From the NCBI GenBank assembly GCA_033980235.1, contig CM067067.1, positions 11,076,901 to 11,140,900 on the forward strand: 64,000 bases of DNA, read 5' to 3'. How positions within the stretch are numbered: position 1 is the first letter of the stretch; the number at the start of each line of letters is the position of its first letter. The translations under genes and the position numbers were made by a program. Shown here in pieces: positions 5,056 through 34,381 of this stretch. A model generated the notes under the pieces. It made no database searches. It saw only the letters and a program-made list of their open reading frames with translations, and was not told the DNA's origin. This DNA comes from Diadema setosum. Lineage: Eukaryota; Echinodermata; Echinoidea; Diadematoida; Diadematidae.

Positions 5056-8000
5056 GTATAAAACAAATTCATGTAATAAGTTTTCTCAAAGATCGTACAC
5101 GTGTACGATCTTTGGTTTTCTCACTTCATGCAATAATACAGTCAACCCTGAGGTCATTCGTCTATAGCGGTCACCTGTCTATAACTGCCGCCTTTCCGTG
5201 TTCCTTGACTGGCCGTTAGAGACAGGTTTGACTTTCTAACTTCCACCCAATGCGCCTAAAAAATGGGTGAAAATTCGCCAAACCTATTCCAACTGCAACC
5301 ACTAAAACTCTCTGTCCTGCTTATAACGGCACGACTGTTGTATGTTTCGAAATGTTGATGAATTATAGCTCATTCTCGTTGATACACTTTTTTATTTCTT
5401 ATATTTTTTATAAGTTAATTTTCTCTAATTAATTCAAGTATGAACGTTCCTATACGTAATCTTTATTAACAGAAAATAATACGTTTAAAATCAGAGTAAT
5501 ACGATGCAATGTGTGAATGCGCAGAGATTAATCGACAACCTTGAATGTAGTGATACAATTTAGTGCTTTTAGGGTATTCTTAAAATATGACACCTGTTTC
5601 TTCCCTTATACTGCATATACGTTGTATAACGAGTTACAAAGATATAAAATGTTTAGCCATGTCTTCAGATGACCTGGAAGTCTCCTTGATTCTGTTATTT
5701 GCGTCTCCTTCTTCTGAAATAGAATTGTGCCTGCTAATGGTGGAGAAACAGTATACTGATTATCGGTATACCAGTGTTGGGTGACTCTTTGATATCTATT
5801 TCCATGTTGTCTGGTTTTTGTTCTTGTTGTTGTTGTTTTTTTTCCTGTTTAGAATGCAAGCAAGATTATGTCAGCCTGTATGAGAGCTTTATTTTTAAGC
5901 TGCTTTAAATCTCCTTTCTTTTTTATTGCAGTTGACCAACCTGCTTGCTAACATGGAGACCCGCTACTCGACCGGAAAACCGTGCAAAGAAGACGGCACA
6001 TGTTACTCGCTGGAGCCTGGTATAAAATGATTCTGGTGTTCGATAAATTTGAGTTAGATACAATTATTCTGACAGAGTGCGTTATGGTGTGTGGTATAAT
6101 ACAGAGATGTGGTGGAGCTAGTGACAGGTATTAATGTACTTAGTTCCTGCATAGTGTCTGCCAGTTTTCGTAATACATCCCATAGGAATCCTGATTAGTA
6201 AATGTGACCAATGAAGGGGGAATATTGCAGCTACCAAAATAACGACCAGATCGAAGTATGACCATTGCTTTTATAGTTACTGCGTCATGGCTATTGCAAT
6301 TATTGAACGGAATTTGCATTTATTTCGTATGGTACTGGGGAGGGGAGCTTCGGTATGTGTCATTGCTGCTTTGTGATTGTTTTTGTTTTCTAATCTGGAC
6401 CTGGTCCAGTTGGATAAGGTACAGAGGTTGACCCTAGTTTTCTACTTATCTCCTGCACCGGTAGATCTGACTCGTATAATGGCCACGTCTCAGGACTACG
6501 CGGAACTCTACTGGGCGTGGGATGCCTGGCGGGCTGAGGTCGGCGCGCCGGCGAGGATTGACTACGCCCGCTACGTGGAACTTAAAAATGAGGCAGCTCA
6601 AGCGAACGGTATTGTGAAGTCATTATACCCATTAACAGTCGATCTTGAGAAACGCTTCATTATCACAAATGTGCTTATGTTATAAAAGGCGTATTGAAAG
6701 CGAAGATCCAACAGAAATTAGACACGCTGACAACTGCGATAAAACCTTGTGATCTTGTATGTCCCTTGTATGTCCCCTTTGTTTCTCATTCACTTTTTTA
6801 ATGCCACTTGAAGGGAATTAGCTTCAGAAATTAGCAGACAGGTGTGTCACGTGCACTTTGGAAAATTGAATCGGAACCTTAAATTCTTTAAAGAAGAGAG
6901 GGATCCACATATCGAACTAGTGAGTAACCCGTCACTTCTGACATATTCACTTACAGGTACGTTCCCATGGTAACAGTTACTATGTATCATCAAGTGATAA
7001 ACTTTTAGGATGGAGACTGACCGTGTCCTGTAAAATTCAAAACAATAAGAATTCACTGCTGCCGTGACGGAGCCCGATGACGGGAGTATATTTAGAGTGA
7101 GAATCTAATTAGAATCATATTTTATCTAACGGTTGAGCTTTTACTATTCTTTCATCATGTCCACTGTCGCCCATGATTTATCTGACACGAACTAATGAGC
7201 ACACAAACACTGCTATAAAACCATTAGCTTGACTACTCGAAAGCCGCTCAGTGGGTTCTGCCGCCAAGCAGAGACTATAGCAACACTTCAGGCACACTTG
7301 AGGAAGATTTTTCTTCCCCTTCTTCCGACTGTCGCATAACCCTGGGCGGCTGAGGCTTTTGAGCTTCGCCCGTCGAAGCAGGAAGTGTCGCCTCTGAATT
7401 GGGAAGAGGTATAATCTGAGGCTCCATCATGGTCACTTTGCTCTAAACCATCGCTCTTTAATTTCGGATATGACGAGTTCCCCCTTAATAATTCAAAATT
7501 CCACCATAGTTGGCAGTTATTGACACCACGCCAGGTCTATTATGTTGTTGCGCCCTTGCAGACAAAGGTAAAACCTGCATCTAAACTTGCCTCTTCTCCG
7601 TCACCATGGCGACGCCAGAGAACGGGGATTCGCCGCATCACCTTTAAGTTATTGTTGCAGCTGTGGTACACGTTGGATAGCATTGACTTGTCACCATACG
7701 TTGTATAGTAATTATGATTGATGTCTCGCATTATTTACTCATCTTCAATAAATTAAGAATGATTCTCTTCTTCTTTCTCTACCATGAGTGATAACCTATC
7801 TAGCTCACCTTCTCTTCCTCTCTCCTCCCCCACCTCCTCCTCCTCTATCTATGTATACTTTCCTATCCTCTCGCTCTCATTTCCTCTCAATTTTTTTCCT
7901 GCCGGCATCACTGACACTCACATCCATCTTTTCTTATGTTCTGTGATCTCTCTCTCTCCATCCCCATGTCCCTCCCCTCCCACCTCTGTTGGCCGTACCT

Positions 8001-10866
8001 TCCACAGACCAACCGGACAATGGCGCGTATTGGCGATCATGGTACGAGGTGGACGATCTGGAGGATCAAGTTGAGGATCTGTACAATACGCTGTCGCCCC
8101 TCTATAGGAATCTGCACGCTTACGTCCGCCGGAAGCTCTACGACGTCTACGGACCGAGGTTCATCAACCTTCGGGGACCCATACCGGCTCATGTGCTTGG
8201 TAAGACTATATCAATGCGCGCAGAATCTGTCCCCTTACCCACTCCTATCCCCCTCCCCAACATACATCTCCTCCACAAAGGATGATTAAAGGTTGATAAT
8301 AAGTGTCGATGAAAGGAAATAGATACTGTCGGAGGGTGACTCTGCATCTATACCCCTAGCCTGTACAGTTTGAAAACACACAGGCGCGCGCGCACACACA
8401 ATACACACATAGGTTGAAAAGGACACCTCAAGTAAACAATGAGTGACTTCAGTAATGTTCTTGATACGAGATCAAAGTAAACCCATAAATCGATTGGGAA
8501 ATATTCAAATAGATTCATGTCAACGTTACTGATGTGCTAATAGCAGCGAACTTTGTCGATGACTTAACACAGTTTAATTGACTATCGAAAATGCATTCGA
8601 TTCAGCTTCTGTTTATCAAACTCCATCGCGACCTACGTGATAATGTTCAATAATGATGCCACGACGCTATTGTCATATGGGAAGTACTTCTCCTTGTTGA
8701 TAGAGTGTACAAGAAATTATCAGGACACACGAAAAGGTAAAGATGAGGAACATGTAATGCCTAAATAAAACAGCTAGAATTTTCCTCCAGTTAGATATCA
8801 TGGAGAATTGAACTGCACAGCATTGTGACAGTTTGCCCTCGTGCGTGCATTGAATTAATCTCTTTATCTCTTAAATTGGTTCATAAAAGGGAAGGCGGAT
8901 TCATGACCTTTACACAACAATTATAAAACTAGTGCTGTTGCACACTGCACTATACAATACCGATTTGTTGCCCTAAATTGCTAAATCATGATTTCACGTG
9001 ATAAAGTATATCATGAAATCAGTCGACTTCTGCAAACAATGCCTCAATAATACGATAATTGACATTTAGAGCACCACGAACGGAAGCGAAATTGCGCTTC
9101 AGAGTTCAGATCCAATTTATGACGGTAGGATTGTAATACTGCAATGTTGTACACGTGTAGGCCACAATGGTTCTTGGAGTCAGCCGACTATTTGTGTCTG
9201 TAATTGCAATGGAGTCTTTCGAGCTGCGTTTACACCATTTTCCCGGCGGCCACGGCAGCCCCGTTTGCCAGAAACGTTAATAGTGCGCCGTGGATAGATG
9301 AGACATCTCCTGCATTTCCCCCTTTGCATTCTAGTCTTGTTCAATCCAGTCCTGGCCCTGGTAAACATATAGCTATCAGACGCTGTTCTTTCGGCTTTTG
9401 GCAAGGCTAGACTATTAATACTTTCAGTAACCCGCAACGGACAGCCTCCAAGTTCTGTTGCGGCCTATTACATACATCCCCGTTTTGCTGCGTTCACCCC
9501 GTTTTATCACTGCATACAAGATTCCTCATTGGCACCGGGACTGCCGTGGCATTTTTTTTTTTTGACAGTTAAAAAATCTGACAAGGCATATCACGGCAAT
9601 CACGGCCTGTCGCATTTGCCTATTCCGTCTCATCGCGTTGTTTTCAAGTCCATTCCGTTTTGTCCATGGTGGCCTGAAACGAAGCTGCCGTGATTGCCGG
9701 GAACATGGTGTAAAAGCAGCTTTATGAAAAACTGAGGACACCTAAGAACACACACATTAACGATGGTAGATAATGAAAACATAACTCTACATTAACCTGT
9801 TTTTTTCCTCTGGTGGCCCGCTGAGGCTATTAAATTCTTTGAATCTGAATTATTGGTTGCCGCCAAAAGAAACGTAGTGGCAGAAAATAAAAAGGAAAGA
9901 TCATTATAAATATTCATTTTGAATTAAAGCTGCCAGATCGGGCCATCGATAACTTGCTGAAATTTGGTGGCTACATATGATTTTTTTCGTGACCCTGGGC
10001 CAACATACACGTATTGGGACGGTTGTCATGTTGTGTTTTTGTTTTCTTAATTTCTTCCTTCTAATTCTGATGGTGTACGAGAGTGGAGAGTCAATATTTT
10101 TCTTCTTCCTAAAGTGCTATAATTTGATCTGATCGGAGGGGATATGGGGGAATAGGTACAGATAACCGTAGATCAAAAGTCAGGTGTTATTTGAGTATCG
10201 CCCATACTCCCGAGGGCACTAAAGCTAAAGATAATATATCTTTATAATAGGCTATTAGGCGTGATGACAAACATTGTAATCACAGTAAGTGCGAACTAAA
10301 TAGGCTGGTGGATTTTATCCCACATCTGCAAAGATTCTAGGGACCCGACTGTACATTATTGGCATTCTATAGCAATACCATTGTGGGCTTTAAGGTTGAA
10401 AATACCGTCGAACAGATTCCGATGATGACCATCACTCCCAAAAGAGTTCTTCATCCAACAGCATTGCCCATTCGCCTTGCCCTGAAAAATACATATTATT
10501 CAGGTCTCGACATTGACTATATCAGTTATCGTCCGAGACGCAGTTTATAGTGTATATAACAAATAGTGAACGGTTTTCGCTCCTGCATGCGCTGGAAGAA
10601 ATTTCGCATTCGGCCTCGCCTTGTTTAGAAGAAGTGGTTCATCTTTGAATTTTTAATGGCGCTCACGACAGTTCACTGTCACTTTCATTGTAATGCTATA
10701 TTTGAAGCTGACGTTCTGTCCCATTCTCATTCATTAATATGGTGCTAATTGCAGAACTTCATTTATGTATGAAAGGTGTATACGTGTTTATTCAAGTATC
10801 AATGTATACCAACACATTACGGAGAGAACATGAATTAAGATCCCATTTAACAGCGCCATGGATTTT

Positions 10867-10936
<70 letters not shown>

Positions 10937-13900
10937 CAACACAACACAACAACAACAACATAACTGAAAATAAGGGCAATAATTCTTTCTACCCTTCCAT
11001 TTCCAACTTTTATTCAATTTCTCCTTTGGTTTCTTTTTGAAACTTATTTGGTAAAAAACCTCCAGGTAACATGTGGGCGCAGAGCTGGCTGAATCTGAAC
11101 GATCTTTGCCAGCCATATCCGGACAAGCCAAGCGTCGACATCACACCAACTCTCGTCGCGGAGGTACGATCACGGGTCGTCTTCTCTCCCAAGAACCTTG
11201 TTTTGATGTTTGTTTGGAGATAATTTGAAAACTATCCATCCAAGCAGGGACACCTGCTGAAGTCAATGTGGTTGGATTATTCTCTCCCGTGATTGGACGT
11301 GACTGCTTTTACCATTTCAAAATGCAAAAAAAAAAAAAAGTCTTTGACCTCTTGAACAGCATTAGTTTTATGTTTGTTTTGGTTTTGTTCATTTTTTGCA
11401 ACTGTCTTTCCTCTTTCGTTTTTCTCTGTTGATCTTGAAATCAATAGATTTAAAAGCTATCATCTTAGTAATGTAATTCAAACGGAATACAAAATAGCTG
11501 CAATAATGATAGTTTGATGACAGTTACAGGCATTATTATTATAAAAAAAATACCAAAACCAAAACCGATTCAGCTGTAGCAACATTGACTGACAAGTGAC
11601 CACAAGCGAATGGGATAACCATCATAATTACGAAGGATCAGGACAGTCATTCGAAGTGATAATAACTATGATAACAATTAATATTTTCAATAATTTTCGT
11701 TTCAGTCTTATGGCTATTTGAATAACACGCTGCGATATAATGGGTTGATAATTTGAGCAGGTCTTCTGTTAAAAAGAATACCATGAACTCTCTTAATTTC
11801 TAGGACTTAAATTTTAAATCTTTCTTACGACTTAAAATATTTTAAGTCTTTAAGACTTATTTTAGGTGGCTTCGATTAAAAGTTGAGTGTCGAAGCTGTT
11901 CGCAATCTAAATCTAACAAGGACTTAAACTTTCAGCCAATCAGATGACTTGTAAATGACGTCATGCGCTATCTTGAACCGCCTAAAACCGGAATTGGCGC
12001 TGGCCGTCACTTTGCTTCATGCGATGCTAGATAGCGTAGTCATACACACACATTCAGTGCACAACATGTGTATGTACTTGTACCTACCATGTTTGCAGCA
12101 AACAAACGCTATTGACTCGAACAGTTGAGTTGGTCTTGAAGGCAGAAGTCATGCAGGCCGGAGTTTTTTGAGGGCATGATCTGACGGAAGCTTGACCAAG
12201 TTGCTTAAAGGTGAGCATATTACTGTATGAATGCTTAAGAATGTGTTTGATAACTCTGGGACTCAGTAACCAAAGATAAAAGATGTTAAGATGTGCACTA
12301 ACCGCCCTACATTTTTGGCGAGTTTGAGCCTTGCCGCTGTATACAGCGCTGTCCATCCCTGAAGCGCCAGTGCTAACGTTAGCTGTTCATGGCTAATTAG
12401 TAATGTGTCTATCCAAACATTGTAACAAGTTACATGAAGGCTAACGTTATACTAGTATTGTGGGGGCTCTATTTCGGTGAAACTGCAAGTACAAGTATAA
12501 TAATACAGGGACTCTTATAAAGCGCCCATTCTACCTAATGATTTACGATGTTGGTGTCTTGACTGAAAGGTAAAGCTATGGGCATAACAGGCTACTGTAG
12601 CGTAGGCCTAACTGTCGTCTAACACTCATATTGAAAACTTTCGCCCTAATTCACGCAGAAAATCCGACGTAGCAGACGCTGGAGAAAGTGAGTGCGTGTG
12701 GGGCGAGTGGCTAGTCGACACGTTAATGGGGGTGGCCTGCAGCACCGTGCGTGGAGGGACATCATGTTCACATAATTTCACGCGTAGTGTGTTGTGTGTA
12801 GGCGGCAGAAATCGGGTTAAATCTACAGTTGAGATATAATCTAGGACCTTATCATTCCTTTAAAACATTATTTCAGTTGATTACCTGTGCACAACACGTG
12901 TACATAAGCACCCAATTGCAGACAGCAGGTGGCAAGCGACCGTTGCAACTACTTACATTATTACCACCTCCGAAGAAAATGCACCAGTCCGACTAGAGCC
13001 ATCATCGAAAAATGAGAAGGAATGTGAAATATATTTGGTTGTTTTTGCTCCCAAACTTAGCAATTATGTTGCTCGTAAGGCTGCTACGTATCTAGATAAT
13101 GTGTCACATACAACTGTATCTTGATATTGCATTGAAAATGATATTTGGCGAGAAACAAAAGCTTGAAATCACAGGAATTCACACTGCTGACGACGGCAGA
13201 CAGTGAAGGTCAACGGCTCAAATTTTCGTTGGTAGTCTCGTCACGTGATAGCTCTGTGTGGATTGTACACGTTCCCTATGACAGCAATTGTGACGGGTAG
13301 TCTAGCTTTACTGCTTATTTGCGTCGGGACTGCTCAACCAATGAACAAGATTCTTATATCACAAAAATGGGCAGAATCTCTACTCTCTAAAACCGTGCGC
13401 CCCAAGTTCGTGCGACTTTCCGTTCTCGAGATATCCCGTGTGGAAGAACTGCAAGACGGCAAAATGTGCTCAAATTCGTCAAATTTGGACTGTTCGCCAT
13501 AGACAAATCTACTCATAAGGTACTTTTCTGATCAAATTTGCGTCACGACTACAAATGTTACAATAATGATATATACACATAAATAATCCCTAAAGTGTCT
13601 ACATTCAGAATCCGGGCGCCCCAAGTTTGCTTCTTAAATAGTTTAAAAGTTATGGCAGATTTTGTGGAAAAATGCGTCGATTTTTGACCCGTTTTACGTG
13701 TTGTAGCGTTCGCGCGGAAGCGCGGCTTCGCAGATGACCGAAAGTTTTCAATATGGAGTAACAGTAACAAGTTAGTGTCAGTTCACCCCTTCCTACACTC
13801 TTGTAAGGTTTAATTTATCAATTTCTACGTAGAAAGGCACAGTTCTAGGCCTTATCATGCCCTATGCTGTGATAAAATGTAGGGCATATGCTGTTAGATG

Positions 13901-20935: not shown

Positions 20936-23900
20936 CAACCGCCACCCGTCCACAGTTCCCAACTCCCACTTTGTACCTGTTGCCGATCTTCCGTTGATAG
21001 GGTTACACCCCCCTGCGGATGTTCCAGGTCTCCGATGAGTTCTTCGTTTCGCTGGGACTGATCGAGATGCCACAAGAATTCTGGAATCATTCCATGATCG
21101 AGAAGCCCACTGACGGTCGGGATGTGGTCTGCCACGCTTCCGCCTGGGATTTCTACAACCAGGTCGACTTCAGGTTGGTTCGCTCAAGCTCAATAACTCA
21201 CTTTAAAAAAAAAAAAATCATTAAGACAACTTTATCCTAGTACAATGGCTTTCACTCCATTCTCGCAGTCTCTTGTTTTATAAGATGAATTTTAAAATCA
21301 ATGGCAAAGTTACGATTGATTGGGGAACATGAGGTTGCTTTCGATAGACGGAATCGGAGCTGACAAGGCGAGGGTCTTGCTCTATGGAAGCCCAAGAAAA
21401 CTTGCAATTAAAAAAAATGACAAGACTGGAAAAGGGAGAAGAAAAGACAATGAAAATGAAGTGAAAACCATTGTAAGAACATGCAGTTGTCTAGACTGAA
21501 AGACATATTTAGTGATCTTTTCGTAATGGTGGTTTATTGTGTGCATAATCTGTGTGTCGATGTGGCTGTATCCAGCCTTACAGTCGCACTCGGGCTATTG
21601 AAACAATCACACGCGTGTGGCTGTATATCCAGCAAAGAGATTTTAATCTCTTTGATATCCAGCTACCGTGGATAGAACCACACGCGTTTGGCTGTATACA
21701 CCACTTTTTTAAATCCATATACCAAAATGTTAGTGTCACAAGTTTGGCCCAAGTATTCACAGTGTCATCAATAAACATGAATGTAAGGCTTGTCACTTTT
21801 AGGGAAAGAGAACATTTATGTAAAGGTTGCAAATCGTTTTGGTTGATGATAATGTGAATAGCTTGTTTTTAAATATGTTCTGTCTGCATAAAACATTTCG
21901 ATGGATTATGTATGACTCGGTCGGCTCAAGTCTCTTAAAGGAAGCAACTTATTTCATTGTTCCGATATTAAGTGAAAAAAAAAATTGAATCACCATATTG
22001 TTGGTTTTGATGACCATAATATATAACACTTTGTATTATCACATTGTATATTGTTGTTTTTTTTTTTTTATAATAGCCCTTTCTTATACAATACACCGTG
22101 TACCTTATATGGTTACTCTTTTATTATGTACAATATTTTTGTATCCATATGCTATAGTTCATCATATTATGATATATATTTTAAAACCTAGTTTGCATTT
22201 TCATTTTAGATTATAGAACTTATCTTAGAATATGTATTATTATGTACTGAATATAGCATAGCTTTGACATTAATATACAAAGAAGGTACACGCTCATATA
22301 CATGAAATCATGTCACTTTTTCCCCCTGCCACCCATTGACGCTCCTGTATCATCTATGGAACAAACAAACAAACAAACAAACAAACAAACTAACAAACAA
22401 ACAACCCTGCATGTCACTTGCCCATACAAGAATCTTGCAGTGTACCACACCCTTTATGGAGGACTTCGTCACCATACACCACGAGATGGGGCACATTCAG
22501 TACTTCCTCCAGTTCAAAGACCTCCACATTGGCTATCGCACGGGCGCCAACCCCGCGTTTCACGAGGCCGTAGGGGACGCTATTGCACTTTCCGTCGTCA
22601 CGCCTGGCCATCTGTACAAAATAGGCCTCTTGGATGAAAAGGTGGAGGACTTAGGTATACCGGTCGTGGTAAAAGGGTGTCTGTAATGCGTCTCTATCAG
22701 TTGCGTAGTTTTTTGTTTGTTTGTTTGTTTTTTTTCAAACTTCCTGGCGTGGTCTTGTCAGTCGGTCCTGTTTTCCGGTAGTTACGTTTCTTTGCGTATT
22801 AATGTTTGATTCTGCGCATTTGTCCTTTTGTGTTGGTTAGAGACAATGTCCATGTTATTGCTGTGAAATGTTCGTTTCGACACTGTCACACTTCTTTCGA
22901 TATTATTGGCGTAATGGCTGTTTCCGAACAAATATTTAATATTTGCTGCAATCTTGTCGATGTTGTCGTTGTTGTTTTTGTTTTTGTTGTTTTTCCTTTG
23001 TTTTGCTCTTGCCTGATTTGTCGCAGTTTACAGACTCGCCTCGAGTAGGCTGCCTATTAGCCAATAAAAACTACTTGACGTGTCGAAGTCTCCGTATCTT
23101 GAAATAGAAGCAAATAGTGCATCCGGTTCGAATACCTTTTGATGAGTCAGGATATCACTCTGACCACGATTCTTATTAGCCTTACCATAGAGCTACGGCT
23201 CCATGGTTTTAGTTCCAAACGATGTTTACTGCGACAAAGTATACCAGAGCATGACATCTCCAGTGTTTTCATCATTAGACTATGAGTAATGCAGATTGTG
23301 CACGATTTGCTTTGGGGCGCTCTCTACGGCAGGACTTGGCATGAAGATTTTCTTTGCTGTTGTCGTTGTTGATGTTGTTGTCTTTATAGAAGATGTCGAG
23401 CAAGCATGGAATTTGCACATTCTGATTGTGAAGCACTGACAATGGCATAAAACAGCTTAAGAATGTAGTGCCTGGTTTTATTTTAAACAACAGATCATAC
23501 ATGCAGCTCTATAAAATATTGTACATGTACCATCATTATCGTGTTCCCCTTGTCCAGCTGTTTTGTGATGCTATTGCTTTGTTGTTTCTTTTACTAGAAA
23601 GAAAATGATACCAATGACGAAAATTAGCAATAAAGGGGTATGGGTTTAAGTGAAAATGCAATGAAAAGTGAAAACTAATCGCTAAGCTGACCCATAAGAT
23701 CAATACTTTAAGGTCACAAATCTATTTCATACTGTTTTGTGTCGCAGACAGTAGAATATTCGGACTTTGAGGTCATCGTCCCCGCGACCACCTGGGACTA
23801 CAGCACTGCAAGAATTTCTGCTCAATTCGTTATTTCCTCCATTATACATACAATAATTGCGTTCCGACGATTTGATTTTTTGCCGGTCTGGGCTTATAGG

Positions 23901-26900
23901 TAGGCAGCAGACAAGACTGGTACGAAGACGACTCGAATGACGCGACGAGATCTGTCTGCAGGACACGTGTTCTGGTAGCCAGTGTAAAGCTGCCGGCAGT
24001 CACGGGGCAGCTAGCCCAGTTTGCCCGAAACCGTGGGCTTAAATCCATGGGTCTTTGGTCATTTCCCCCTTCTTTATTCACAATTTTGTCTTCTCTCTTC
24101 GTATCGGAAATGCAGCAACGGGGTCGTTCAACCCGTTTAACCTCGCCCTAGTATGTTTTTCGTTGGCACCGTGATTGCCGTGGTGAATTGTCTGACAGTG
24201 AATCTGATTATTAGTAGCCGCAGCAATCACGGCCATTCAAGTTTGCTGATCTGCCCCTACCCCCCCCCCCGTATTGTTTCACGTCCCACCCCAACGTCAG
24301 CCCATCAGCCTAAAACGTCTGCAGTTTCGAAGAGGCAATTACTATCACCCATCAAACTCACACGAAGCACTAAACAGTGTCAGCTAAACAAATAGTATTC
24401 TTCTTGGGAGAAGTGTTTACCCTTTATCATAAATCCTGTATGATGTCATCATATTAACCTATGGTATGAAATCGTATATGCACGTGTAGTATTCTAAATT
24501 CATCACGTTTATGACGTTACTCACTTTATTGCTGCAATGTGTTCCCGCAGTGTAACAATTTCCTTTCCACGTCAGGCTAGTGTAGAACCGTTAATGCTTG
24601 CGTGCATTATTTTGACAAATATTATTAGATTTATATTACCTACCATGCCTACATTGATTGCGTAGTTCAGTTCAGTTAACTCACCTATCTTGCCTTTAGT
24701 TTCTTCTCTTTTTTTTTTTGTCTGTGATGGAATCATATTTTCGTAGAGTGTAATACTACTTGTTTTCATGCTTATGATATTCAAGAATCAAACAATGCAC
24801 AGACATAACAATGGATGACTTCATAACCATACACCACGAGATGGGACACGTGGAATATTTTCTCCAGTATATGGAGCAGCCGGTGGTGTACCGGGAGGGT
24901 GCCAACCCAGGCTTCCACGAGGCGGTCGGCGACGTGTTAGCTCTGTCCGTGACAACTCCCAAGCATCTCTACGAGGTCGACCTCCTGGACGAATTGGTGG
25001 ACGACGAGGGTACAACCACTAAATGCATCGTCGCTTTCACTTTTTGTCTCAATATTTCACTTGCTCGTCTTTCGCCGGTGTCCAAACAACAAACTTTCCT
25101 CACCCCATGATCATGTCTCACAACCGTCTTACCCTTTGATTTGTGATAAGCGCGATGCTGGATCAAGATCGAATACTTGTTAGGCTTTTTAGTCTATGCA
25201 CTCAAAAGATAGTAAAACAACGAGTACATTTCAAATGCATTTTTCATTCAAACGTTGCTAAACATTATTCAGCTATACTTGACAATGAGAACCAATTGCT
25301 ATCCACCAAAGATTACCCGCGTATCAAAAATGGCATCATTTTATACTATCGCGTCATTGCGTGCCATAAAATAATAATAAAATACAGCTCAGTGCTCGTC
25401 ACAAATCAGTAATTCATGGGTTAAGGTCATGCCTACATCACATTCCGCCTCATACTCCTCATGCTGTCCTGCATGCTACTCACGAAAACGATACTAATAT
25501 GTATTTTCCTCCGCCCTATTAACCATTACAAACGACAATAAAGATAGTTACTGATAGCGATGCAATAAAGTGATAAAATAATAGTGAAAGGGGAATATTG
25601 TACGGAGGTAAAGATAAGGTGGTATACTATGTAGGTGAATTGTATTTTCTTATTCGACACCTCGTCGGGCGTAAACTCGGCGGTCCAGAATCAAACAATG
25701 CACAGACATAACTATGGATGATTTCATCACCATACACCATGAAATGGGACACGTGGAGTACTACCTCCAGTACGAGCATCAACCTGTGGTCTACCGTCGC
25801 GGGGCCAACCCGGGCTTCCACGAAGCAGTCGGCGACGTCCTCGCTCTGTCTGTGTCCACACCTCAGCATCTCTTCGACGTCAATCTCCTGCCTGAAGTCG
25901 TAGATGATGAAGGTAGTCACGAGTTCAACACCACGAATCGTACAGCCCAAGAGTCATACAGCCCACGAGTTGTACAGCCCACCAGTCATACCACCCATGA
26001 ATTCGACACTAAGCAAATAAGGCCCATGAGTCGATCTGACACTAGGCAAACAAGGTCTACGAATTCGACACTAAGTCGACAAGGCCGACGAGACCGAAAC
26101 ATTAAGCCCCGTAATGTCGAACTCATGGGTCGATTTTTTTTTTCTATAGTGTCGAATTCGTTAGCCTTTTTTTTTTTCTTTGTGTCAAACTCGGAAGCCT
26201 TGGTTGCCTAATTTCGAATTATTGGGCCTTGTTTGCCTAGTGTCGAACTTATGGGCTGTATGACTCGTGGGCTGTATAGGCCTATGCCTCATATGGACCC
26301 TTTTTTTCGATGTCGAACTTGTGGGCCGTATGTCTCGTGGGTGTCGGTCTCATGGGATGACCCTGTCTCCCCGCCATCCTCTCGTCATTATCAAAGATAT
26401 TTAAAGAGATGGAGAATGTACTTGGAAGAGTTATTAGTGAACTAGAGAAAAAAAATATATATATAAACGTTGACTTGTATCGATTTTTTTTTTTACAAAA
26501 CGTAAGTTTCCAGCCCGGGATCCAGTCATTTTGCTAGTACAATGTATAAGAATGGACCCTACGGTATACGTCCATGGTGTAAGCGCTCCAGAGAGTCAGT
26601 TAGTTTTGAGGGTTTAGTATGAAACTTCACTACCAATCGACGTGCACAGATTTTGTTGCATAGAAAATTATTTTGAAATATGAACAAGATGATGTACATT
26701 GTGTTCAACATGCATAACTTCTCATTTATAGCGACGAGCGCGATGCAGTGTAGTTTTTAGGTTTGCGATGGTAGCGCGATGAAGGCGTATCAAGAGAGGT
26801 AGTGAGTATTATTCTTTTTTTCTGCCTAATTTTCATCCCTGGAAAAATTATTAAAACTGATATCCACTATGTTTTCATTTTTCATCAATATTTTGTGCAT

Positions 26901-27855
26901 GCGCTGCTTCCTTCTTTGTCTTTGCATTGAATGTATTCGAATCTCTTTGCCAAATCATTTATTTATGACATAAAAAGAAACAAAGAGTGGTTAGTTTGCT
27001 TCAGCGATGGCATATCATTTTTTGTAAGCGAATGAAATAATAACTTTTCATGGCATGTTGAATTTCACACATACCCCTTTCAAATGTGTGTCTACAGTTA
27101 CTTCTTCATGTTCTTAAGTGCCTATAAATTATGTATCACTATGAGTCATACACGTTTGAAGATCAGTAATCACTGTCAATAGATACTAAGCGATTCCTTT
27201 GCTCGTTAACATTGAGAGTACAAGAAAACAAATCAAAATCAATATAACATAAAAAGACAATTTCATCATGGGACTATCTTATTTACTGCCCTACACCGAT
27301 TTGCCAAACCGCAGAACGGAAAATGTCTCTATACAGTACAAGATTCAACAACCCATCAAAACGGCATAGCCGCGCTAATCCTGTCGACGGTGATTTAAAA
27401 ACAAAATGCTTATAATCTCCCGCTTTCATCCAGTACCAAGTAACATTCGAATGGGTTCCTGCCTCATTCACCTTTATACGTTATTTCTGTCTGAATGGGG
27501 TGATGTAATTAATGTATCGATTTCTGTTTCTACGATTACTGTTTATTTTTGGTAATATTGATGTTTTTGACGTGAAATAGGAAATAGTATATCCTGCGCC
27601 TTGTGGCTCCACCTTGAAATACTCACAAGGGGCAATTCTTTCAACACAATGATATGATTATAAACAAACTCTGGAATAAGAGTCTATGAATTTGAAGAAT
27701 ATTATTTAAAAAGCACTAGAGCAGCGTGTTTCTTGCACGGCAAGCACACTTTATCTGTTAGTTTATCGTTTATGATTGAAAGCTGTTTGAATGAATACAA
27801 TTGTACTAAGATAGGCTGATGAAAAACAAAATATATATAATAAGGACCCTATGAT

Positions 27856-27931
<76 letters not shown>

Positions 27932-29460
27932 ATATATATATATTTACATATATATATAATATGTAGGATTAAAGAGCTCTCAAAACAGAAACATTTCTCT
28001 CATCACAATACATGCATTTGCGTATGTTTTGTCCAAAATACTTATGAATATCCGAATGTCATACAGGGAGTGGGTTGCATTTTCCCAGCAACATGCATTT
28101 TCATCGTTATACAAACTGGCCATATCTGTTGTACCGGGTCATTCCCGGATTTGTCTCGTACGGAGAGTATAACCCCATTACATCACTTCATCTGTGTACA
28201 TCAGTGTATCCGCAGTGCACCAGTGTTTATTTCCCATGAACGTTTGGCAATTTGGTGTTGTATGCTGCGATGCGAAAATCAAGCATTTAGTGTCATGTTG
28301 TCAAAGTGATACATTCCTCTTATGTCTGTTGATTTGTTTGTGTCAGTTCATCATGTTCGATGTCAAAATGGAGTAGACGTGCTTTCCTATCATTAAAGGG
28401 ATTGAATAGTTTTGGTTTAGACCTAATTTCTGGTTTTTAACATTTTTGGGTGAGATAATGAGAAACCTCTTATGAAATATGACAGAGCTTGTAATTCTAT
28501 GAGGAATTCAACGTTTATTTGATGAAAATTGGTTTTGAAATGGCTGAGATATCCAAAAAAAGAGCGATTCTGGTAAAGTGTGGGACCCACAATTTATTAC
28601 GATCGCTTTGTTTTACTTTGTTTTTGGATGTTTCAGTCATTCCAAACCCGATTTTCATCAAATAAACTTTGAATTCTTCTTAAAACGGTATACTCTGTAC
28701 TATTTCATGTGTTTTCTTGGTATCTCGCAAAAAGTTAAAAGCCCAATTCTCATCTCCATCAATACTGTACTATCCCTTTAAGTCATTCAAAATTCGCGAA
28801 AAATGATTCTAAACTTGCCCCTTATAACATAGTAAAATAAGTCATATTCCGAATGAAGGCCCAAATACATCATCGGGTCCAATGCATATTAGTCCCCTAA
28901 ATTGAAAGCTTTAGCAATAATGTACCACCATTCAGTACGAAGATTATCATTGCATGAGAATTCAAACAATGATACATTCCAAATAATAGAAAGACGAACA
29001 GTAACGATAAAAGGCTTCTTCTAATCATCTTTCGTCTTATTATTCTCCCTTCAAACCAAGAACATAATTATAATGTATACCGAACCCGGAATTGTACCTT
29101 TCACTTTGCAAATGGTTATACAAAACCTTACGTAGAAAACTTTAATGTGATTTTTTTCCTCACCGATAACAAGACTGCAGGGCCATGATAAGATTAAGAA
29201 AACGGTGACACGTGACGATGAATTATTACAGTTATATACCACCTGTATACCATCCATCTCTTTCACCTCCCTGCACTCTTTGCCTTTACCCCACAGAGGC
29301 GGATCTGAACTTCCTCATGAGCATGGCTCTGGATAAGATCGCATTCCTGCCATTCGGATATCTCATGGACCAGTGGAGGTGGCGTGTCTTTGATGAGACC
29401 ACGACTGAGGATAAGTTCAACGAGGAATGGTGGAAACTCAGGTTTATTCAGAATTTGTTT

Positions 29461-30293: not shown

Positions 30294-33200
30294 GCACAAT
30301 ATGTAACATGATACTTGTGGGTGTATGTATATGATATTATGAATTATTGCAATTTTCGATGTCTCCTATCGTAAGTGAGGCACGCCCAAAAGACTCACCT
30401 AAGACATAGGCCAAATTATAATTGCTTTTCTGCCCCATCTACCCCTTCTCCATCTCCCCTCCCCTTCTTCTCTCCCTAGACTGCTATATCAAGGTATCAT
30501 TCCACCAACCAATCGCACGGAAGAACACTTCGACCCGGCCGCCAAGTACCACATTCCAGCTGATGTACCTTACATCAGGTAACTTTTTACCCGTGGCGCC
30601 GCTTTCTATACTCCTTGATCTGCATCGCACGCAGACGACATGGCCTTTATCATTGTTTATCTATCGGTTAGGTTTTCGTGAAAACCACCAACGTTCGCAT
30701 TAAGTGGCCACTTCAATAAAACATAAATAAAAAAAAATTAAAAAGTGGCCACTTTATTTCACAGTATGACATCGACCAGCTGTTGACTTTCGTCAATATC
30801 CTTATGGCGAGGTTGTGGAGCAGATTTTACCATCTCTCACTGAATGGGTCACGGTTTTTCTGGGAAGTCGAAAGTCTAAACTTTTATACTGTATGCCATG
30901 CAGCTATGATGACATTTCGGCAGCTCTGTTCACATTTTCTTTCCCATTTTCCTTCCTAAAGCTGATGCACTTCGATCTATTCTCACCTTGTCTCCTCAGG
31001 TACTTCATCAGCTTTGTCATTCAGTTCCAGTTCCACGAGGCTCTCTGCAACGCCGCCGGCCACACTGGCCCACTTCATAAATGCGACATCTATCAGTCCA
31101 AAGAAGCCGGCACGCTGTTGTCGTAAGTGTGATGGGATGTTAACTCTTGCGTCACCATCGGCAACCTTTTTAAAGGAGTGTCGATGTCATGATGAGTTTG
31201 AGGTACTAAGGGGGTTAATGGGGTCAATAAACTTTAGCTTGCCGCTATTTAAGTTGTTTCATGTACAGTACAAGATGAGAATGGATGATCGTGTTATATT
31301 CATGATGGTTATTATTAGTAATCGAAATGCCGAGTGTAATGAGAACGATGACGATAAAGGTATTAACGATTACAATAACGTTGGTGATATCACAATAATG
31401 GCACTGATAACATTGGTAATGATCGTGCATGTAAACATATGAAATATTAAATAGAAAAAATTATGAGAAGTCAATTTCGAAGACAGGATATAAAATGACC
31501 TATCACACCCGTGGCTTTGCGATTAACGAGGAAGCCATTATTTCGAGAGCTCAGTAGACCAAGTTTACTTATAGCGTATATTCTTGGACGAAAAACATTT
31601 TTCATCATCATTGTTAAATGCTACTTTGATCTCCAGCAACATGCTTAAGATGGGCTCAAGCCAACCGTGGCCCGAGGCTATGGAAGCCATCACCGGAGTC
31701 CGCATCATGGACGCATCAGCGCTGGTGAATTACTTCCAGCCGCTTATTGATTACCTAGAGGAGAAGAACGCCGAAAACGGGGACGAGCCAGGATGGGATG
31801 AGATGTACTATCCAGATGGTAAGACCCCCATGTCCACCAAGCATCAACGCATAGAATAGCGGTTGTTGCCATGGTTTTTGTCAATATAGGATACAGGCTC
31901 CTTCAAAATTAACATGTCGATTTACATGATAGACCAAGCGTCATAACGCAATGTCCACGGGTTATTCAGTTCAATTCAATTCAATTCAATTGTTTATAAT
32001 TCCATCAGTTCCATCAAAAAGAAATACATAATACAAGGTATTTACCGATTCAATGTTTTAACAATTTATTTGGAAGGACAAATCATTAAATATGATTCAA
32101 AATATATACGTACGAGTGATATTAGAAAGAAAACAATGCACGCTTTGCCATTGAAAACAAAAAATAAGAAGCAGGCCGAAATAATTATGACGATGGAAAA
32201 GTGTTTCATTAAAAAAAGGCTTGTAAGACGTGAATCAACGGTATTACTTTATCTAGGGGATCACTGAACAAGTCTCTTTTGTGTGCATTTTCTGATTCCC
32301 CCGCTATCATTTTTGTACGTTCGGTATTTTTTATGTGTATTACCAATGTTGTTTGTTGTTTTTAATGATGTCTGATGTGAAATTTGGAAATAAACTCAAT
32401 TTAATTTATCATGCTTATATGAAACAAACACAGGTTCACACAGTGCGGTTTATGTGAAAATGTCCAAAGTTCACATAGATCACTCAAAGAAAAACAAGTA
32501 ACAACACCAATATACTGACATAACGTATTCATATGCTAAATTGGTCTATGTACCATACTACCATTGGATCTTTTTAGTCATTTATAATGATGCTGATGAT
32601 ACAGAGCATATACTAACAGTATCAACAGCCTATAGGATTATCAAAATGCTTTGCCATCTCTCGCTTTGAATCATTCATCTAAATAGCGTTCCCGAGGTTT
32701 TTAACGCATAATACTTACAGGATACTTAATAAAAGAATAACGAATTACAATGTTGAAAAAAAAAGAAATAAAGCAGGGTAATTAATAAGTATATACGACG
32801 CATTTATTTATGCTCTCGACTTGAAAACAAAACACGACTTTCGTGCTTTGTGTACAATGCTGAGTTTTCCCAGTTTACAGGACATCGGACGCAGGTATAT
32901 TATTTCAGCATACAAAGACATACCTAGACCCAATGAATGGTAACACACTTCGGAATAAAAACGAAGACATTTTGTATACAATTTCATCTGCATCTGGCTT
33001 CGTCGTGGTACATATCGGTTAGTCGTGGGAGGCATCGAATGAACTGAAATCAACACGCACAAGATTACCTCTAAACACCTCCAAATACTCATTGAAATGT
33101 TTTTGTTTTGTTTGAATTGTCTCACCAAGATCCATATACATTCGGAAGCGGAACAATTCTCAAGCCTTCGATTGTAGCTCTGTTGTTCCCTCTGATGTAC

Positions 33201-34381
33201 TTCTTCATTCAGCTGTTTTGAGTGGCCAAACGTCGTCACATGGGGCTTACGTCATAAAAGGGACCTTCGAAGCATCGTGTTGTATAATCTCGTGTGCATA
33301 TCACACGCCTCGTCAATAACAGCCTTTCAAGTTCAAGAGCGCCAGGCATTATACCGTTATGGTCTAATGAAAGACACACAATCATCACTCGATTTAATTT
33401 GTTGATCATATTCACTGATGTGGGATTGCTGTCAAAGGCTTTCGAATGAAGTTGTTAATGAACGTTGTATATAAAGATGCGATGAAGTTCATTATCATCA
33501 GGGAATGTTTGCACGCTTAGGGATATTGTTATTGATCATAATATACCTCAGTTGAATTTTCTGTCATTTTGGTCACTTCCTTATTGTCATAAGGTGCTTT
33601 TGAATGTGAATGTACAAGTACATATCTTGCAATGCAAAGCACGAATCGACGTACACATATACAACACGACACAGAGGTTCATTGGGTGACATGCCTATAT
33701 ACATATACATCCTGCGTTATGAGAACGAAGAGCAGCAATAAGATTTAAAATCAAACGAACCGCCATTTCAATGGCGAGTTTAGGACATTGATGGTTGATT
33801 ACCTATAGGGAAAATCATTTGATTGATTATGATTTTTTAACGAAAATAGGCGTTTATGATTTTTTTTTTCTAAAGCGATTCCCCTACCCGTCTTTCGTGA
33901 CATTACGTAATATAAAATGCCTTTATCTCTCAATATAAATGTACCGCTTGGAAGAGCATTTGTGAAAAAAAGTATAGGAAGAACATACGACATGGTGTAC
34001 CTATGACAGCACGTGCCTCTCATCTTTCATAAGTCGGTTGATACATTATGAACATGGAGAAACTGCCCATGTTGATGATAATGCTATTTGCATTAATGAT
34101 TATAATGATGATAATGAAAATAATATTGGCTTCTTTATAAATCTACCAATAGTAGACTGCACATCATGACAGAATAAACAGATATGTCTAAAAAGAGAAC
34201 TTCCTAAAAATGTCCCTTCAGGAGATGTGACGTAAATATAGGAAATATGGAAGTCATAGCAACGATTTGGGCCACAGTATGAAAAACTTCTCCCGGTGTC
34301 CCTTACAGCTATGTTTTTAATTTTACTTCAGGAATTGTTGGCACTCAGGATATACTTCCTTTCTTCGCACCTGTTTACTGA
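4900..34381 (+). CDS. ACE: Angiotensin-converting enzyme (M2 peptidase), multi-exon gene, 5' incomplete
   Basis: Zinc dipeptidyl carboxypeptidase that removes C-terminal dipeptides from peptides, usually extracellular or membrane-attached. Exons placed by homology to remembered ACE motifs and by splice phase: 4900-5055, 5932-6019, 6465-6608, 8008-8199, 11066-11163, 21001-21173, one of 22431-22654 / 24786-25009 / 25689-25912, 29297-29441, 30480-30578, 31000-31122, 31637-31818, and possibly 34332-34381. Visible motifs in order: [51 protein letters not shown] with downstream [27 protein letters not shown] and [18 protein letters not shown]. In human testis ACE numbering (from memory) the zinc ligands H383, H387, E411, the substrate residues K511, H513, Y520, Y523 and the chloride ligand R522 all have counterparts. 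The signal peptide and the first helices are not seen. One catalytic domain is visible; a second domain upstream of the window cannot be excluded. Confidence 0.93.
5087..5114. repeat. 28-bp perfect palindrome with central CACGTG
   Basis: The two 14-base arms (CAAAGATCGTACAC and its reverse complement) abut without a spacer. The centre is an E-box CACGTG. It sits 31 bp inside the intron after the exon ending at 5055. Confidence 0.9.
5139..5340. mobile_element. Degenerate short interspersed repeat
   Basis: Begins ACAGTCAACCCTGAGG and has CTATAGCGGTCACCTGTCTA and a near-inverted GACAGGTTTGACT. The ACAGTCAA-type end resembles the element at 55776-55955, so it is probably an old MITE fragment in an ACE intron. 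Boundaries are approximate. Confidence 0.35.
5932..6019 (+). CDS. ACE: ACE exon: [13 protein letters not shown] segment
   Basis: Follows a TTTTTTATTGCAG acceptor and encodes [18 protein letters not shown] and then GTCYSLEPG. The two cysteines match the first conserved ACE disulfide pair. It ends one base into a codon that the next exon completes as Asp. Confidence 0.88.
6465..6608 (+). CDS. ACE: ACE exon: DLTRIMATS segment
   Basis: Encodes [20 protein letters not shown] followed by WRAEVGAP and [13 protein letters not shown]. These match the canonical ACE stretch from DLTxIxATS to LSNEAAxxNG. The acceptor is GGTAG and the donor GGTATT. One base of the final codon is left for the next exon. 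Confidence 0.92.
8008..8199 (+). CDS. ACE: ACE exon: YWRSWYE to GPIPAH
   Basis: Encodes [20 protein letters not shown], then [20 protein letters not shown] and the hallmark [13 protein letters not shown]. The acceptor is TTCCACAG and the donor GGTAAGA. It completes the split codon of the previous exon as Asp and ends with one base of a Gly codon. Confidence 0.94.
9180..9740. repeat. Dispersed repeat with CGGCAATCACGG motifs, copy 1
   Basis: Contains TTGGCACCGGGACTGCCGTGG, GACAGTTAAAAAATCTGA and GCAATCACGGCC in the same order as the copy near 24100-24260. It lies in the ACE intron between 8199 and 11066. Internal inverted motifs (CACGGCAATCACGG, CCGTGATTGCCGGG) hint at a DNA transposon. Confidence 0.6.
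10867..10960. repeat. (AAC)n microsatellite
   Basis: About 30 AAC units with CACAACACAAC interruptions, in the intron before the GNMWAQSW exon. Confidence 0.97.
11066..11163 (+). CDS. ACE: ACE exon: GNMWAQSW segment
   Basis: Encodes (G)[19 protein letters not shown] and continues to TPTLVAE, matching the ACE [13 protein letters not shown] block. It ends in phase 0. The cysteine in NDLCQPY is unusual for this stretch in the vertebrate enzymes as I recall them. The intron that follows is almost 10 kb and carries the large insertion at 11786-20716. Confidence 0.92.
11786..20716. mobile_element. Large (about 8.9 kb) inverted-repeat-bounded insertion in an ACE intron
   Basis: The left end reads CTCTCTTAATTTCTAGGACT and the right end, as reverse complement, CTCTCTTAATTTCTAGGATT. 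Both ends continue into about 100-300 bp of subterminal repeats built from AAGTC/GACTTAAA units. No transposase was recognised: frames inside are short and broken. It carries passenger repeats, including the 160-bp X-box array (17870-18990). It is most likely a decayed or non-autonomous DNA transposon; superfamily unknown. A TTAA lies within both ends. Confidence 0.6.
17870..18990 (+). repeat. Tandem ~160-bp repeat array with X-box palindromes
   Basis: Seven units, spaced 151-166 bp. Six contain exact GTTGCCATGGTAAC (17921, 18084, 18245, 18406, 18564, 18715), one has GTTGCCATGGTTAC (18881), and a decayed eighth lies near 18983. Other conserved boxes are CTTGAAATTTGGCACA, TAGATGTGCAAACTT and ATCATACAAAAATATTGTGG. 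The 14-mer fits the RFX-family X-box consensus. Confidence 0.92.
20806..20934. repeat. Compound (AAAT)n-(AT)n-(GT)n microsatellite
   Basis: Three consecutive simple repeats ending 66 bp before the ACE exon at 21001, close to or within its branch-point region. Confidence 0.96.
21001..21173 (+). CDS. ACE: ACE exon: GYTPLRMF to [10 protein letters not shown]
   Basis: The phase-0 exon begins [15 protein letters not shown], aligned with ACE GWTPRRMFKEADDFF. It continues through [20 protein letters not shown] to [23 protein letters not shown] forms the start of the substrate cleft in ACE. It ends two bases into an Arg codon (AG), so the next exon must begin with one base; all three candidates do, with A. 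Confidence 0.93.
22361..22406. repeat. (AAAC)n microsatellite before catalytic exon A
   Basis: Eleven AAAC units ending about 25 bp before the exon A acceptor, displacing the usual pyrimidine tract. Confidence 0.95.
22431..22654 (+). CDS. ACE: ACE catalytic exon, version A (HEMGH)
   Basis: This 224-nt exon after CATACAAG encodes [20 protein letters not shown], then [20 protein letters not shown] and [14 protein letters not shown]. The HEMGH zinc site and the Glu of HEAVGD are intact. It is the most diverged of three tandem alternatives, differing from version B at about 27 of 74 residues by my alignment. It has KDL and MEDF where B and C have MEQ or EHQ and MDDF. Its PAF replaces the usual PGF before HEAxGD. 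The start phase is 1 nt and the end phase 1 nt. An (AAAC)n tract ends about 25 bp before the acceptor. Confidence 0.9.
23900..24270. repeat. Dispersed repeat with CGGCAATCACGG motifs, copy 2
   Basis: Same order of motifs as copy 1 (TTGGCACCGTGATTGCCGTGG, GACAGTGAATCTGA, GCAATCACGGCC). It lies between ACE catalytic exons A and B in the same orientation as copy 1. Ends are approximate. Confidence 0.6.
24786..25009 (+). CDS. ACE: ACE catalytic exon, version B (HEMGH)
   Basis: This 224-nt exon after GATATTCAAG encodes [20 protein letters not shown], then [20 protein letters not shown] and [18 protein letters not shown]. All three zinc ligands and the catalytic Glu are present. Phases equal those of versions A and C. 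It differs from version C at 11 of 74 residues by my count, so B and C look like the younger duplication. Placed after version A in the same transcript it would shift the frame and reach TAA after seven codons. Confidence 0.92.
25689..25912 (+). CDS. ACE: ACE catalytic exon, version C (HEMGH)
   Basis: This 224-nt exon after CGGTCCAG encodes [20 protein letters not shown], then [20 protein letters not shown] and [18 protein letters not shown]. All zinc ligands are intact. The acceptor has only a weak pyrimidine tract compared with other exons of this gene. The donor (GGTAGT) is followed at once by a foldback repeat (25915-26360). Of the three, this version looks closest to the [11 protein letters not shown] form I recall from the human N domain. 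Confidence 0.92.
25915..26360. mobile_element. Foldback repeat directly after catalytic exon C
   Basis: The left half carries ACAGCCCACGAG, CCCATGAGTCGA and GACACTAGGCAAACAAGG; the right half carries their reverse complements (CTCGTGGGCTGT, TCGAACTCATGGG, CCTTGTTTGCCTAGTGTC). Short units recur within each arm. It begins within a few bases of the exon C donor. Probably a MITE with repeated subterminal units. Confidence 0.7.
27857..27958. repeat. (CA)n-(TA)n compound microsatellite
   Basis: CA run of about 40 bp followed by TA run with one TGTG interruption. Confidence 0.95.
28393..28781. mobile_element. TTAA-flanked palindromic MITE
   Basis: Both ends are TTAA followed inward by AGGGAT (left TTAAAGGGATTGAATAGTTT, right as reverse complement TTAAAGGGATAGTACAGT). 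An internal palindrome (GATGAAAATTGGTTTTG against CCAAACCCGATTTTCATC) strengthens the call. TTAA flanks are typical of piggyBac-type insertion. It lies in the intron after catalytic exon C. Confidence 0.7.
29297..29441 (+). CDS. ACE: ACE exon: [15 protein letters not shown]
   Basis: Acceptor CCCCACAG. With the single G from whichever catalytic exon is used, the first codon is Glu, then [20 protein letters not shown] and [16 protein letters not shown] up to EEWWKL. This matches the ACE [26 protein letters not shown] block. It ends two bases into an Arg codon. A (TC)n tract starts about 20 bp past the donor. Confidence 0.93.
29463..29592. repeat. (TC)n and (TATC)/(GATC)n microsatellites
   Basis: A pure TC run starts 22 bp past an ACE donor; then TATC and GATTGATC units follow to about 29592. 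Confidence 0.93.
29699..29747. repeat. (CA)n microsatellite
   Basis: Nearly pure CA run of about 48 bp in an ACE intron; another shorter one lies at 30260-30299. Confidence 0.95.
30480..30578 (+). CDS. ACE: ACE exon: [12 protein letters not shown]
   Basis: Encodes (R)[19 protein letters not shown] followed by [14 protein letters not shown]. Lys, His and Tyr of [10 protein letters not shown] correspond to the carboxylate-binding Lys511, His513 and Tyr520 of human testis ACE; PYIR supplies the chloride-site Arg. NRT is a possible N-glycosylation site. Acceptor TCTCCCTAG, donor AGGTAAC. Confidence 0.92.
31000..31122 (+). CDS. ACE: ACE exon: [25 protein letters not shown]
   Basis: Encodes [16 protein letters not shown], then [20 protein letters not shown], an almost invariant ACE block with the last conserved disulfide cysteines. 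The first Tyr corresponds to the transition-state-stabilising Tyr523. Acceptor CTCCTCAG, donor TCGTAAGT. It leaves a two-base codon that the next exon completes as Ser. Confidence 0.94.
31637..31818 (+). CDS. ACE: ACE exon: C-terminal catalytic-domain helices
   Basis: Encodes (S)[18 protein letters not shown], then [20 protein letters not shown] and [15 protein letters not shown] ending MYYPDG. It matches the ACE SRPWPEAMxxITG to YFxPLLxWLxxxN region and GW near the domain end. The donor is ATGGTAAGA, one base into the next codon. Confidence 0.92.
31819..34331 (+). other. Putative last ACE intron
   Basis: No conserved coding exon recognised. It holds the TTCAA-ended element and otherwise AT-rich unique sequence. 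A 143-codon minus-strand frame (32808-33239) shows no family resemblance. Confidence 0.4.
31967..32405. mobile_element. Interspersed element with TTCAA-rich ends
   Basis: The left end is repeated TTCAA followed by TTGTTTATAATTCC. The right end, GGAAATAAACTCAATTTAATTT, is roughly its reverse complement. A related TTCAGTTCAATTTATTT end occurs at 37549, downstream. Confidence 0.45.
34332..34381 (+). CDS. Candidate terminal ACE exon (short tail, no anchor)
   Basis: A pyrimidine-rich TTTTAATTTTACTTCAG acceptor is followed, in the phase required by the previous donor, by [16 protein letters not shown] and TGA. An AATAAA lies at 34387-34392, only 6 bases past the stop, so it would be an unusually short 3' UTR unless a later signal is used. 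If right, this ACE ends without a transmembrane anchor and would be secreted. The call rests on phase and context, not on conserved motifs; another terminal exon may exist. Confidence 0.35.

What the first reader, a model, noticed from the sequence alone, without database searches (positions are those of the whole stretch)
22431..25912. Catalytic exon of ACE present in three tandem, frame-locked versions
Three 224-nt exons each encode the whole HEMGH...HEAVGD zinc site. All start with one base (A, completing Arg) and end with one base (G). Because 224 is not a multiple of 3, joining A to B, A to C or B to C reads GAA TCA AAC AAT GCA CAG ACA TAA, a stop after seven codons. Skipping all three also hits TAA after 13 codons. 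Only mRNAs with exactly one version stay open, the signature of mutually exclusive splicing. Flanking exons are single copy, so this is exon, not gene, duplication. I know of no ACE with alternative active-site exons.
Basis: partly seen in the sequence, partly recalled or inferred. Interest (0 to 1): 0.93.

Follow-up and report, generated by a model that had tools for sequence, protein, structure and literature searches.

The report
Three alternative catalytic exons in ACE
A sea urchin gene for angiotensin-converting enzyme carries three interchangeable versions of the exon that encodes its zinc active site, so splicing may choose between enzymes with different substrate pockets; whether it does so is not yet shown by transcripts.

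Summary
In a Diadema setosum ACE gene, three tandem 224-nt exons (A, B, C) each encode the whole zinc site with AG/GT borders. Only transcripts with exactly one copy stay open. The gene's other exons are single copy. The copies are old and constrained: B-C dS 1.18, dN 0.11; A-B silent sites saturated. Eight paralogues with an intact zinc motif show one copy each in the stretches fetched. Best reading: one-of-three splicing, with frame shift and decay of other products as backstop. The frame lock itself is inherited: the paralogous exons have the same phase. New here: B and C differ at exactly the two S2-pocket residues that separate the human ACE domains. B has Phe391/Glu403 (C-domain type), C has Tyr391/Arg403 (N-domain type), A has Phe/Thr. 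Two intron pairings could loop out A, or B plus C. Against: no transcript of this species was seen, the D. antillarum model carries exon C, and no close relative of exon A appeared among listed hits. Splice-junction reads are decisive.

The parts
4900..5055 (+). ACE exon E2 (156 nt); exon E1 with the signal peptide lies about 17.6 kb upstream of the window, about G000:C9:11059264-11059491 (L023)
5932..6019 (+). ACE exon E2b (88 nt)
6465..6608 (+). ACE exon E3 (144 nt)
8008..8199 (+). ACE exon E4 (192 nt)
11066..11163 (+). ACE exon E5 (98 nt)
21001..21173 (+). ACE exon E6 (173 nt), constant upstream partner
22371..22405 (+). 5' arm of stem 1, (AAAC)n, close upstream of exon A
22431..22654 (+). 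variant exon A (HEMGHIQYF ... [14 protein letters not shown]); S2 pair F391/T403
22700..22734 (+). 3' arm of stem 1, (GTTT)n, close downstream of exon A
23632..23669 (+). 5' arm of stem 2, in the intron A-B (31 of 38 nt pair with 27043-27080)
24786..25009 (+). variant exon B (HEMGHVEYF ... [14 protein letters not shown]); S2 pair F391/E403, human C-domain type
25689..25912 (+). variant exon C (HEMGHVEYY ... [14 protein letters not shown]); S2 pair Y391/R403, human N-domain type; identical in 75 of 75 residues to the D. antillarum protein
27043..27080 (+). 3' arm of stem 2, in the intron C-E8
29297..29441 (+). ACE exon E8 (145 nt), constant downstream partner
30480..30578 (+). ACE exon E9 (99 nt)
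31000..31122 (+). ACE exon E10 (123 nt)
31637..31818 (+). ACE exon E11 (182 nt)
33129..33221 (+). last ACE exon E12 (hydrophobic C-terminal tail, stop); exact junction to E11 not resolved

Best explanation
This is one ACE (peptidase M2) gene whose catalytic exon was duplicated twice in tandem. The most likely working: the spliceosome joins E6 to exactly one of A, B or C and that one to E8, giving three ACE isoforms that share everything except 75 residues around the zinc site. Step by step. (1) Shown in sequence: each copy fits E6 and E8, and any product with none, two or three copies is frame-shifted and stops early, so only one-copy mRNAs can make full enzyme; decay of the rest is inferred. 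(2) Steric blocking is excluded by intron length (A-B 2131 nt, B-C 679 nt); a U2/U12 clash is unlikely (all GT-AG, no U12 donor consensus by eye, consensus recalled). (3) Inferred: choice is steered by intron RNA pairing; stem 1 would loop out A and favour B/C, stem 2 would loop out B and C and favour A. (4) Inferred: the isoforms differ in substrate preference at the S2 pocket (A F/T, B F/E, C Y/R at 391/403) and, for A, also at 376, 379 and 394.
Against: No RNA evidence for D. setosum in any tool used. The D. antillarum cluster representative uses C and the name shown carries no isoform number; cluster members are hidden, so A and B forms may be there or absent. Among the 120 listed of 350 hits and 120 listed of 291 hits of the two exon-A searches nothing exceeded about 73% identity to exon A. 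Frame lock is ancestral, not special. Acceptors look weak (pyrimidine fraction A 0.61, B 0.67, C 0.39; 8 paralogues 0.61-0.89; 10 other exons of the gene 0.50-1.00), which fits regulation but also disuse. Stem 1 is a simple repeat: it disappears when simple repeats are masked (I1-I2 score 15, 17 of 60 shuffles as good), and such arrays are common (12 of 16 nt or more in 257.7 kb, two of them these arms). No stem explains B against C; the near flanks of B and C show no pairing.
Confidence: 0.75

Rival explanations
1. Only one version (probably C) is in real use; A, and perhaps B, are spliced rarely or never and persist as old copies.
For: The D. antillarum model uses C; A is the most divergent, breaks 2 of 19 conserved columns, sits inside a predicted stem that would hide it and has no close relative among listed hits.
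Against: All three keep an open frame, splice borders and catalytic residues, and divergence is concentrated at silent sites; drift over the B-C or A-B distance would have broken an unused copy with high probability.
Confidence: 0.17
2. The duplicated exons serve as an off switch: joining two copies, or none, makes an early stop so that ACE output is lowered by decay rather than diversified.
For: Every multi-copy or zero-copy product tested is frame-shifted.
Against: The frame lock comes free with this exon's ancestral phase; an off switch needs no conserved catalytic sequence in each copy, yet each is constrained.
Confidence: 0.05
3. Remnants of tandem gene duplication, or exons of separate neighbouring ACE genes.
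For: The genome has about ten ACE-like genes, several close together.
Against: No other ACE exon lies beside any copy; the other exons occur once, in order, around the array; A+B+C group together, weakly, against the paralogues (support 79/91 on DNA, 67/81 on protein).
Confidence: 0.02
4. Exon A came from a paralogue (30 Mb cluster type) by ectopic copying rather than by tandem duplication; use is still one of three (this rival concerns origin and can be true together with the best explanation).
For: In the 31-row protein tree A sits weakly with the 30 Mb exons (76/79); holding A with them is not rejected (p-AU 0.265).
Against: In the 11-row DNA and protein trees of this genome A groups with B and C, without firm support; A is on a long branch, so its place is unsure.
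Confidence: 0.15

Closest known systems
Mutually exclusive exon clusters with competing intron RNA structures (insect Dscam, 14-3-3 zeta, Mhc; PMC6071210 and PMC11802352, passages seen)
   Same: Tandem homologous exons of equal length and phase between constant exons; intron pairings that could loop out members.
   Different: Catalytic exon of a peptidase in an echinoderm; pairing not tested by conservation or mutation; no shared docking site with one selector per exon was identified.
FGFR2 IIIb/IIIc type exclusivity backed by nonsense-mediated decay (cited in PMC6071210, passages seen)
   Same: Exon length not a multiple of three, so double inclusion brings an early stop. [quoted passage not shown] here there are three.
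   Different: Three copies rather than two; phase inherited from the ACE family; decay not shown.
Human somatic ACE, two domains nACE and cACE
   Same: Two natural versions of the S2 pair: Y369/R381 in nACE and F391/E403 in cACE; exons C and B carry the same two pairs.
   Different: In mammals the two versions come from domain duplication in one polypeptide; here they would come from choice of exon in a single-domain enzyme. A human testis ACE E403R mutant and an N-domain S2 mutant exist as crystal structures (4c2n, 6tt1; titles only).
Enzymes or inhibitors whose specificity is set by alternative exons (CYP4F3, PKM, insect serpin-1)
   Same: Alternative homologous exons change ligand or target preference.
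   Different: Recalled, not looked up here; none is a zinc peptidase active-site exon as far as I recall.

Membership tests
Mutually exclusive exons (criteria of Pillmann 2011, PMC3228551, passages) | similar length | tested here: met
   224, 224, 224 nt
Mutually exclusive exons | conserved splice-site type and reading frame | tested here: met
   AG/GT, same 1+222+1 split in all three; each fits E6 and E8
Mutually exclusive exons | homologous sequence | tested here: met
   59.5-85% aa identity
Mutually exclusive exons | internal exons, not alternative ends or tandem genes | tested here: met
   constant coding exons on both sides, others single copy
Mutually exclusive exons | exactly one copy in mature mRNA, more than one copy used across the transcript pool | not testable with these tools
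   no transcript data; D. antillarum model carries C
ACE, peptidase M2 (PF01401) | profile match above the curated cut-off | tested here: met
   exons A, B, C at 107.7, 124.6 and 125.7 bits, cut-off 23
ACE, peptidase M2 (PF01401) | HEXXH plus downstream Glu zinc ligand | tested here: met
   HEMGH and HEAVGD in all three
ACE, peptidase M2 (PF01401) | ACE fold | tested here: met
Competing RNA-structure exon choice | intron elements that pair and loop out members | tested here: inconclusive
   two pairings beyond shuffles, one of them a simple repeat; controls on paralogues negative (7 of 8 for stem 2, 8 of 8 for stem 1); no conservation or mutation test

The most novel reading that the evidence does not exclude
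A single-domain ACE whose S2 substrate pocket is swapped by splicing: exon B gives a human C-domain-like pocket (F391/E403), exon C an N-domain-like one (Y391/R403) and exon A a third (F391/T403, F394), with two rival intron stems deciding between A and B/C. Echinoids would thus reach by exon choice the domain specialisation that vertebrates reach by domain duplication.
Probability: 0.3. Interest if true: 0.87.

Novelty: new variant of a known kind. Interest (0 to 1): 0.72.

Why it matters
ACE is a drug target, and the basis of nACE/cACE selectivity is still being worked on (PMC11880972, passages). A gene that offers three natural, otherwise identical ACEs differing only around the active site would be a clean natural experiment on how a few residues set peptide preference. 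It would also be a case of splicing choosing the catalytic centre of a peptidase. Public RNA-seq of the same individual (SRR24694066, listed in PMC11066563) can test the splicing claim.

Tried and rejected
Gene duplication and assembly error: rejected (other exons single copy; copies 62.5-79% identical in DNA; no N). Steric hindrance as the cause of exclusivity: rejected on intron lengths (coordinates). Dispersed-repeat origin of stem 2: no other copy in the 257.7 kb searched; a genome-wide check was not possible.

Statistics that I judged weak: both S2 sites falling among the 11 B/C differences has P 0.02, and the four residues 376, 379, 391, 403 all falling among the 30 A/B/C-variable positions has P 0.02. 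Both are post hoc, and position 403 is variable in the family generally (299 motif matches over 312 fetched proteins: F-E 80, F-D 55, Y-G 20, Y-R 18, Y-E 18). Representatives near the gene carry Y-D (S. purpuratus P0004), Y-R (P0006, unnamed source), Y-G (P0008, P0011) and F-D (P0012), so the B/C pairs need not be old. The pair I3-I4 (25587-25627 with 29245-29287) also beat its 60 shuffles, narrowly (19 against 18), but its 3' arm is the polypyrimidine tract of E8; not counted as evidence. The other four intron pairs did not beat their shuffles. In one search I had compared the unmasked stem 1 with masked paralogues, which was not a fair control; one search repeats it unmasked on 8 paralogous exons and 13 exons of this gene. 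Shuffles are first-order resampling.

Literature: the ten library searches found no report of alternative active-site exons in ACE; I read only the listings, searches returned nothing, and I read passages of the papers cited. Most subscription papers are not in that library. PMC13264686 was seen in a listing only.

Dead ends: S. purpuratus XP_003724613.1 is named 'isoform X4', so that gene has several predicted isoforms, but the other cluster members cannot be read here. COX1 typing of the genome did not complete; the species rests on contig lengths.
Full report
WHAT IS THERE. The window lies in an 885,718,524-base genome of 96 contigs. Of the eight contigs whose length I saw, five (C4, C8, C12, C15, C18) have exactly the lengths published for scaffolds 4, 8, 12, 15 and 18 of Diadema setosum; C1, C9 and C17 are 2 to 8 kb shorter than scaffolds 1, 9 and 17 (PMC11066563, passages; published total 885.8 Mb in 101 scaffolds). 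I take it to be the long-spined sea urchin. The closest protein is D. antillarum ACE-like, 94% identical. I rebuilt the gene from E2 (4900) to E11 (31818) with AG/GT borders throughout and one open frame of 541 codons for each choice of variant exon. E1 lies upstream of the window at about C9:11059264-11059491, and the last exon is at 33129-33221; the E11-E12 junction is not resolved. The gene spans about 51 kb.

THE OBSERVATION. No fourth copy or recognisable relic was found, and no other ACE exon is duplicated in the window.

IS THE FRAME LOCK A SIGNATURE? Only in part. The same exon in eight paralogous genes of this genome has the same phase; it is 224 nt in 5 of 8 and 227 nt in 3 of 8. Human ACE exons have, as I recall, the same sizes. 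A tandem copy of this exon is therefore frame-locked from birth. With 224 nt, one or four copies keep the frame and two or three break it, so three is the largest array that the frame alone can police; a passage of PMC6071210 says the same of clusters of more than three.

AGE AND CONSTRAINT. B and C differ at 47 of 222 coding positions, 33 of them third positions: dS 1.18, dN 0.11. A is saturated at silent sites against both but has pN 0.24-0.27. Simulated drift keeps the frame and both borders in 1.2-1.4% of runs at 0.6 changes per site. Exon C is identical in 75 of 75 residues between the two Diadema species, while the protein as a whole is 94% identical. B is as close to a crinoid exon (87%) as to C (85%). 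In trees of this genome's exons A, B and C group together without firm support, B with C first; in a wider protein tree A wanders. Tandem origin is the simplest reading, not proven for A. B and C look like ancestral-type exons and A is the changed one.

WHAT DIFFERS. The exon aligns to both human domains without gaps. Of the seven nACE-to-cACE exchanges in the S2-S' mutant quoted in PMC11880972 (passage), four fall in this exon: D354E, S357V, Y369F, R381E. All four positions vary among A, B and C: 376 is E in A and D in B and C; 379 is V in A and I in B and C; 391 is F, F, Y; 403 is T, E, R. B against C reproduces both halves of the S2 exchange: F391/E403 in B as in human cACE, Y391/R403 in C as in human nACE. 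Exchange of that pair in nACE cost 33RE 250-fold in affinity, similar to RXP407 (PMC3875237, passages), although PMC11880972 warns that Arg381 is flexible and by itself not a strong driver. The match is post hoc, P about 0.02 for position alone, and 403 is generally variable. I treat it as a testable prediction.

HOW CHOICE COULD WORK. Introns of 2131 and 679 nt rule out steric blocking; all borders are GT-AG. Two intron pairings exceed shuffled controls. Stem 1, (AAAC)n against (GTTT)n, encloses exon A (duplex -29.9 kcal/mol; whole region z -2.86). In unmasked 300-nt flanks it scores 24, with 0 of 200 shuffles as good; of the 12 other exons of this gene tested and 8 paralogous catalytic exons none beats its shuffles. 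It is a simple repeat and vanishes under repeat masking; such arrays number 12 in 257.7 kb, though the two arms are the only pure arrays of 16 nt or more in the 64-kb window. Stem 2, 31 of 38 nt, joins the A-B intron to the C-E8 intron and would loop out B and C together (score 24 against at most 19 in 60 shuffles; best ungapped match in 30 shuffles 26 of 38). The same masked test on the introns around the single exon of 7 of the 8 paralogues gave none beyond its shuffles. Looping out of exons by flanking pairs is a known route to skipping (PMC11802352, passages). A two-state switch, A against B/C, is a reasonable inference; what decides B against C is open.

WHAT SPEAKS AGAINST. No transcript of this species could be read. 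The D. antillarum model has C, with no isoform number in the name shown. Searches built on exon A (350 of 376 and 291 of 302 candidates with E <= 0.001, 120 of each listed) gave, among those listed, nothing above about 73% identity to A. The protein database is clustered at 90%, so an isoform differing only in this exon would be hidden, and the silence is weak evidence. The genome-wide count of this exon rests, which scored 75 of 96 candidates, and on local searches of fetched loci.

VERDICT. Observation confirmed. One-of-three splicing is the best explanation at 0.75. A splice-selected S2 pocket is a bolder reading at 0.3. The kind (mutually exclusive exons) is known; its use on a peptidase catalytic exon in ACE was not found in the searches named above.

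Noticed in passing
L018 (G000:C15:19041500-19051000), between its E6-like and E8-like exons: An ACE-like paralogue that looks catalytically dead: by eye HHEMGH reads VDLLGQ and HEAVGD reads FKAIAG.
   Followed up: partly
G000 contigs C9, C15 and C17: About ten ACE-like genes in this urchin, several close together; eight besides the window gene keep HE(M/L)GH.
   Followed up: partly
28461-28715: Hairpin element of 255 nt in the C-E8 intron with copies in L027, L012 and L023 (76-91% identity), MITE-like.
   Followed up: partly
25931-26290: Imperfect inverted-repeat element starting about 20-30 nt after the exon C donor, with related sequence in L024; could fold next to the donor.
   Followed up: partly
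42680-44452: Glucose-6-phosphatase-like exons on the + strand downstream of the ACE gene; named by recall from the translation.
   Followed up: no
31818 and 33129: E11 donor (GATG/GTAAG) and E12 acceptor (AAG/GATCC) do not join in the frame of the D. antillarum protein; an unseen exon or another border may be used.
   Followed up: no
L010 3841-3862: A paralogue also has an AAAC/GTTT array close upstream of the same exon, there (GTTT)n in gene orientation; its flanks show no pairing beyond shuffles.
   Followed up: partly
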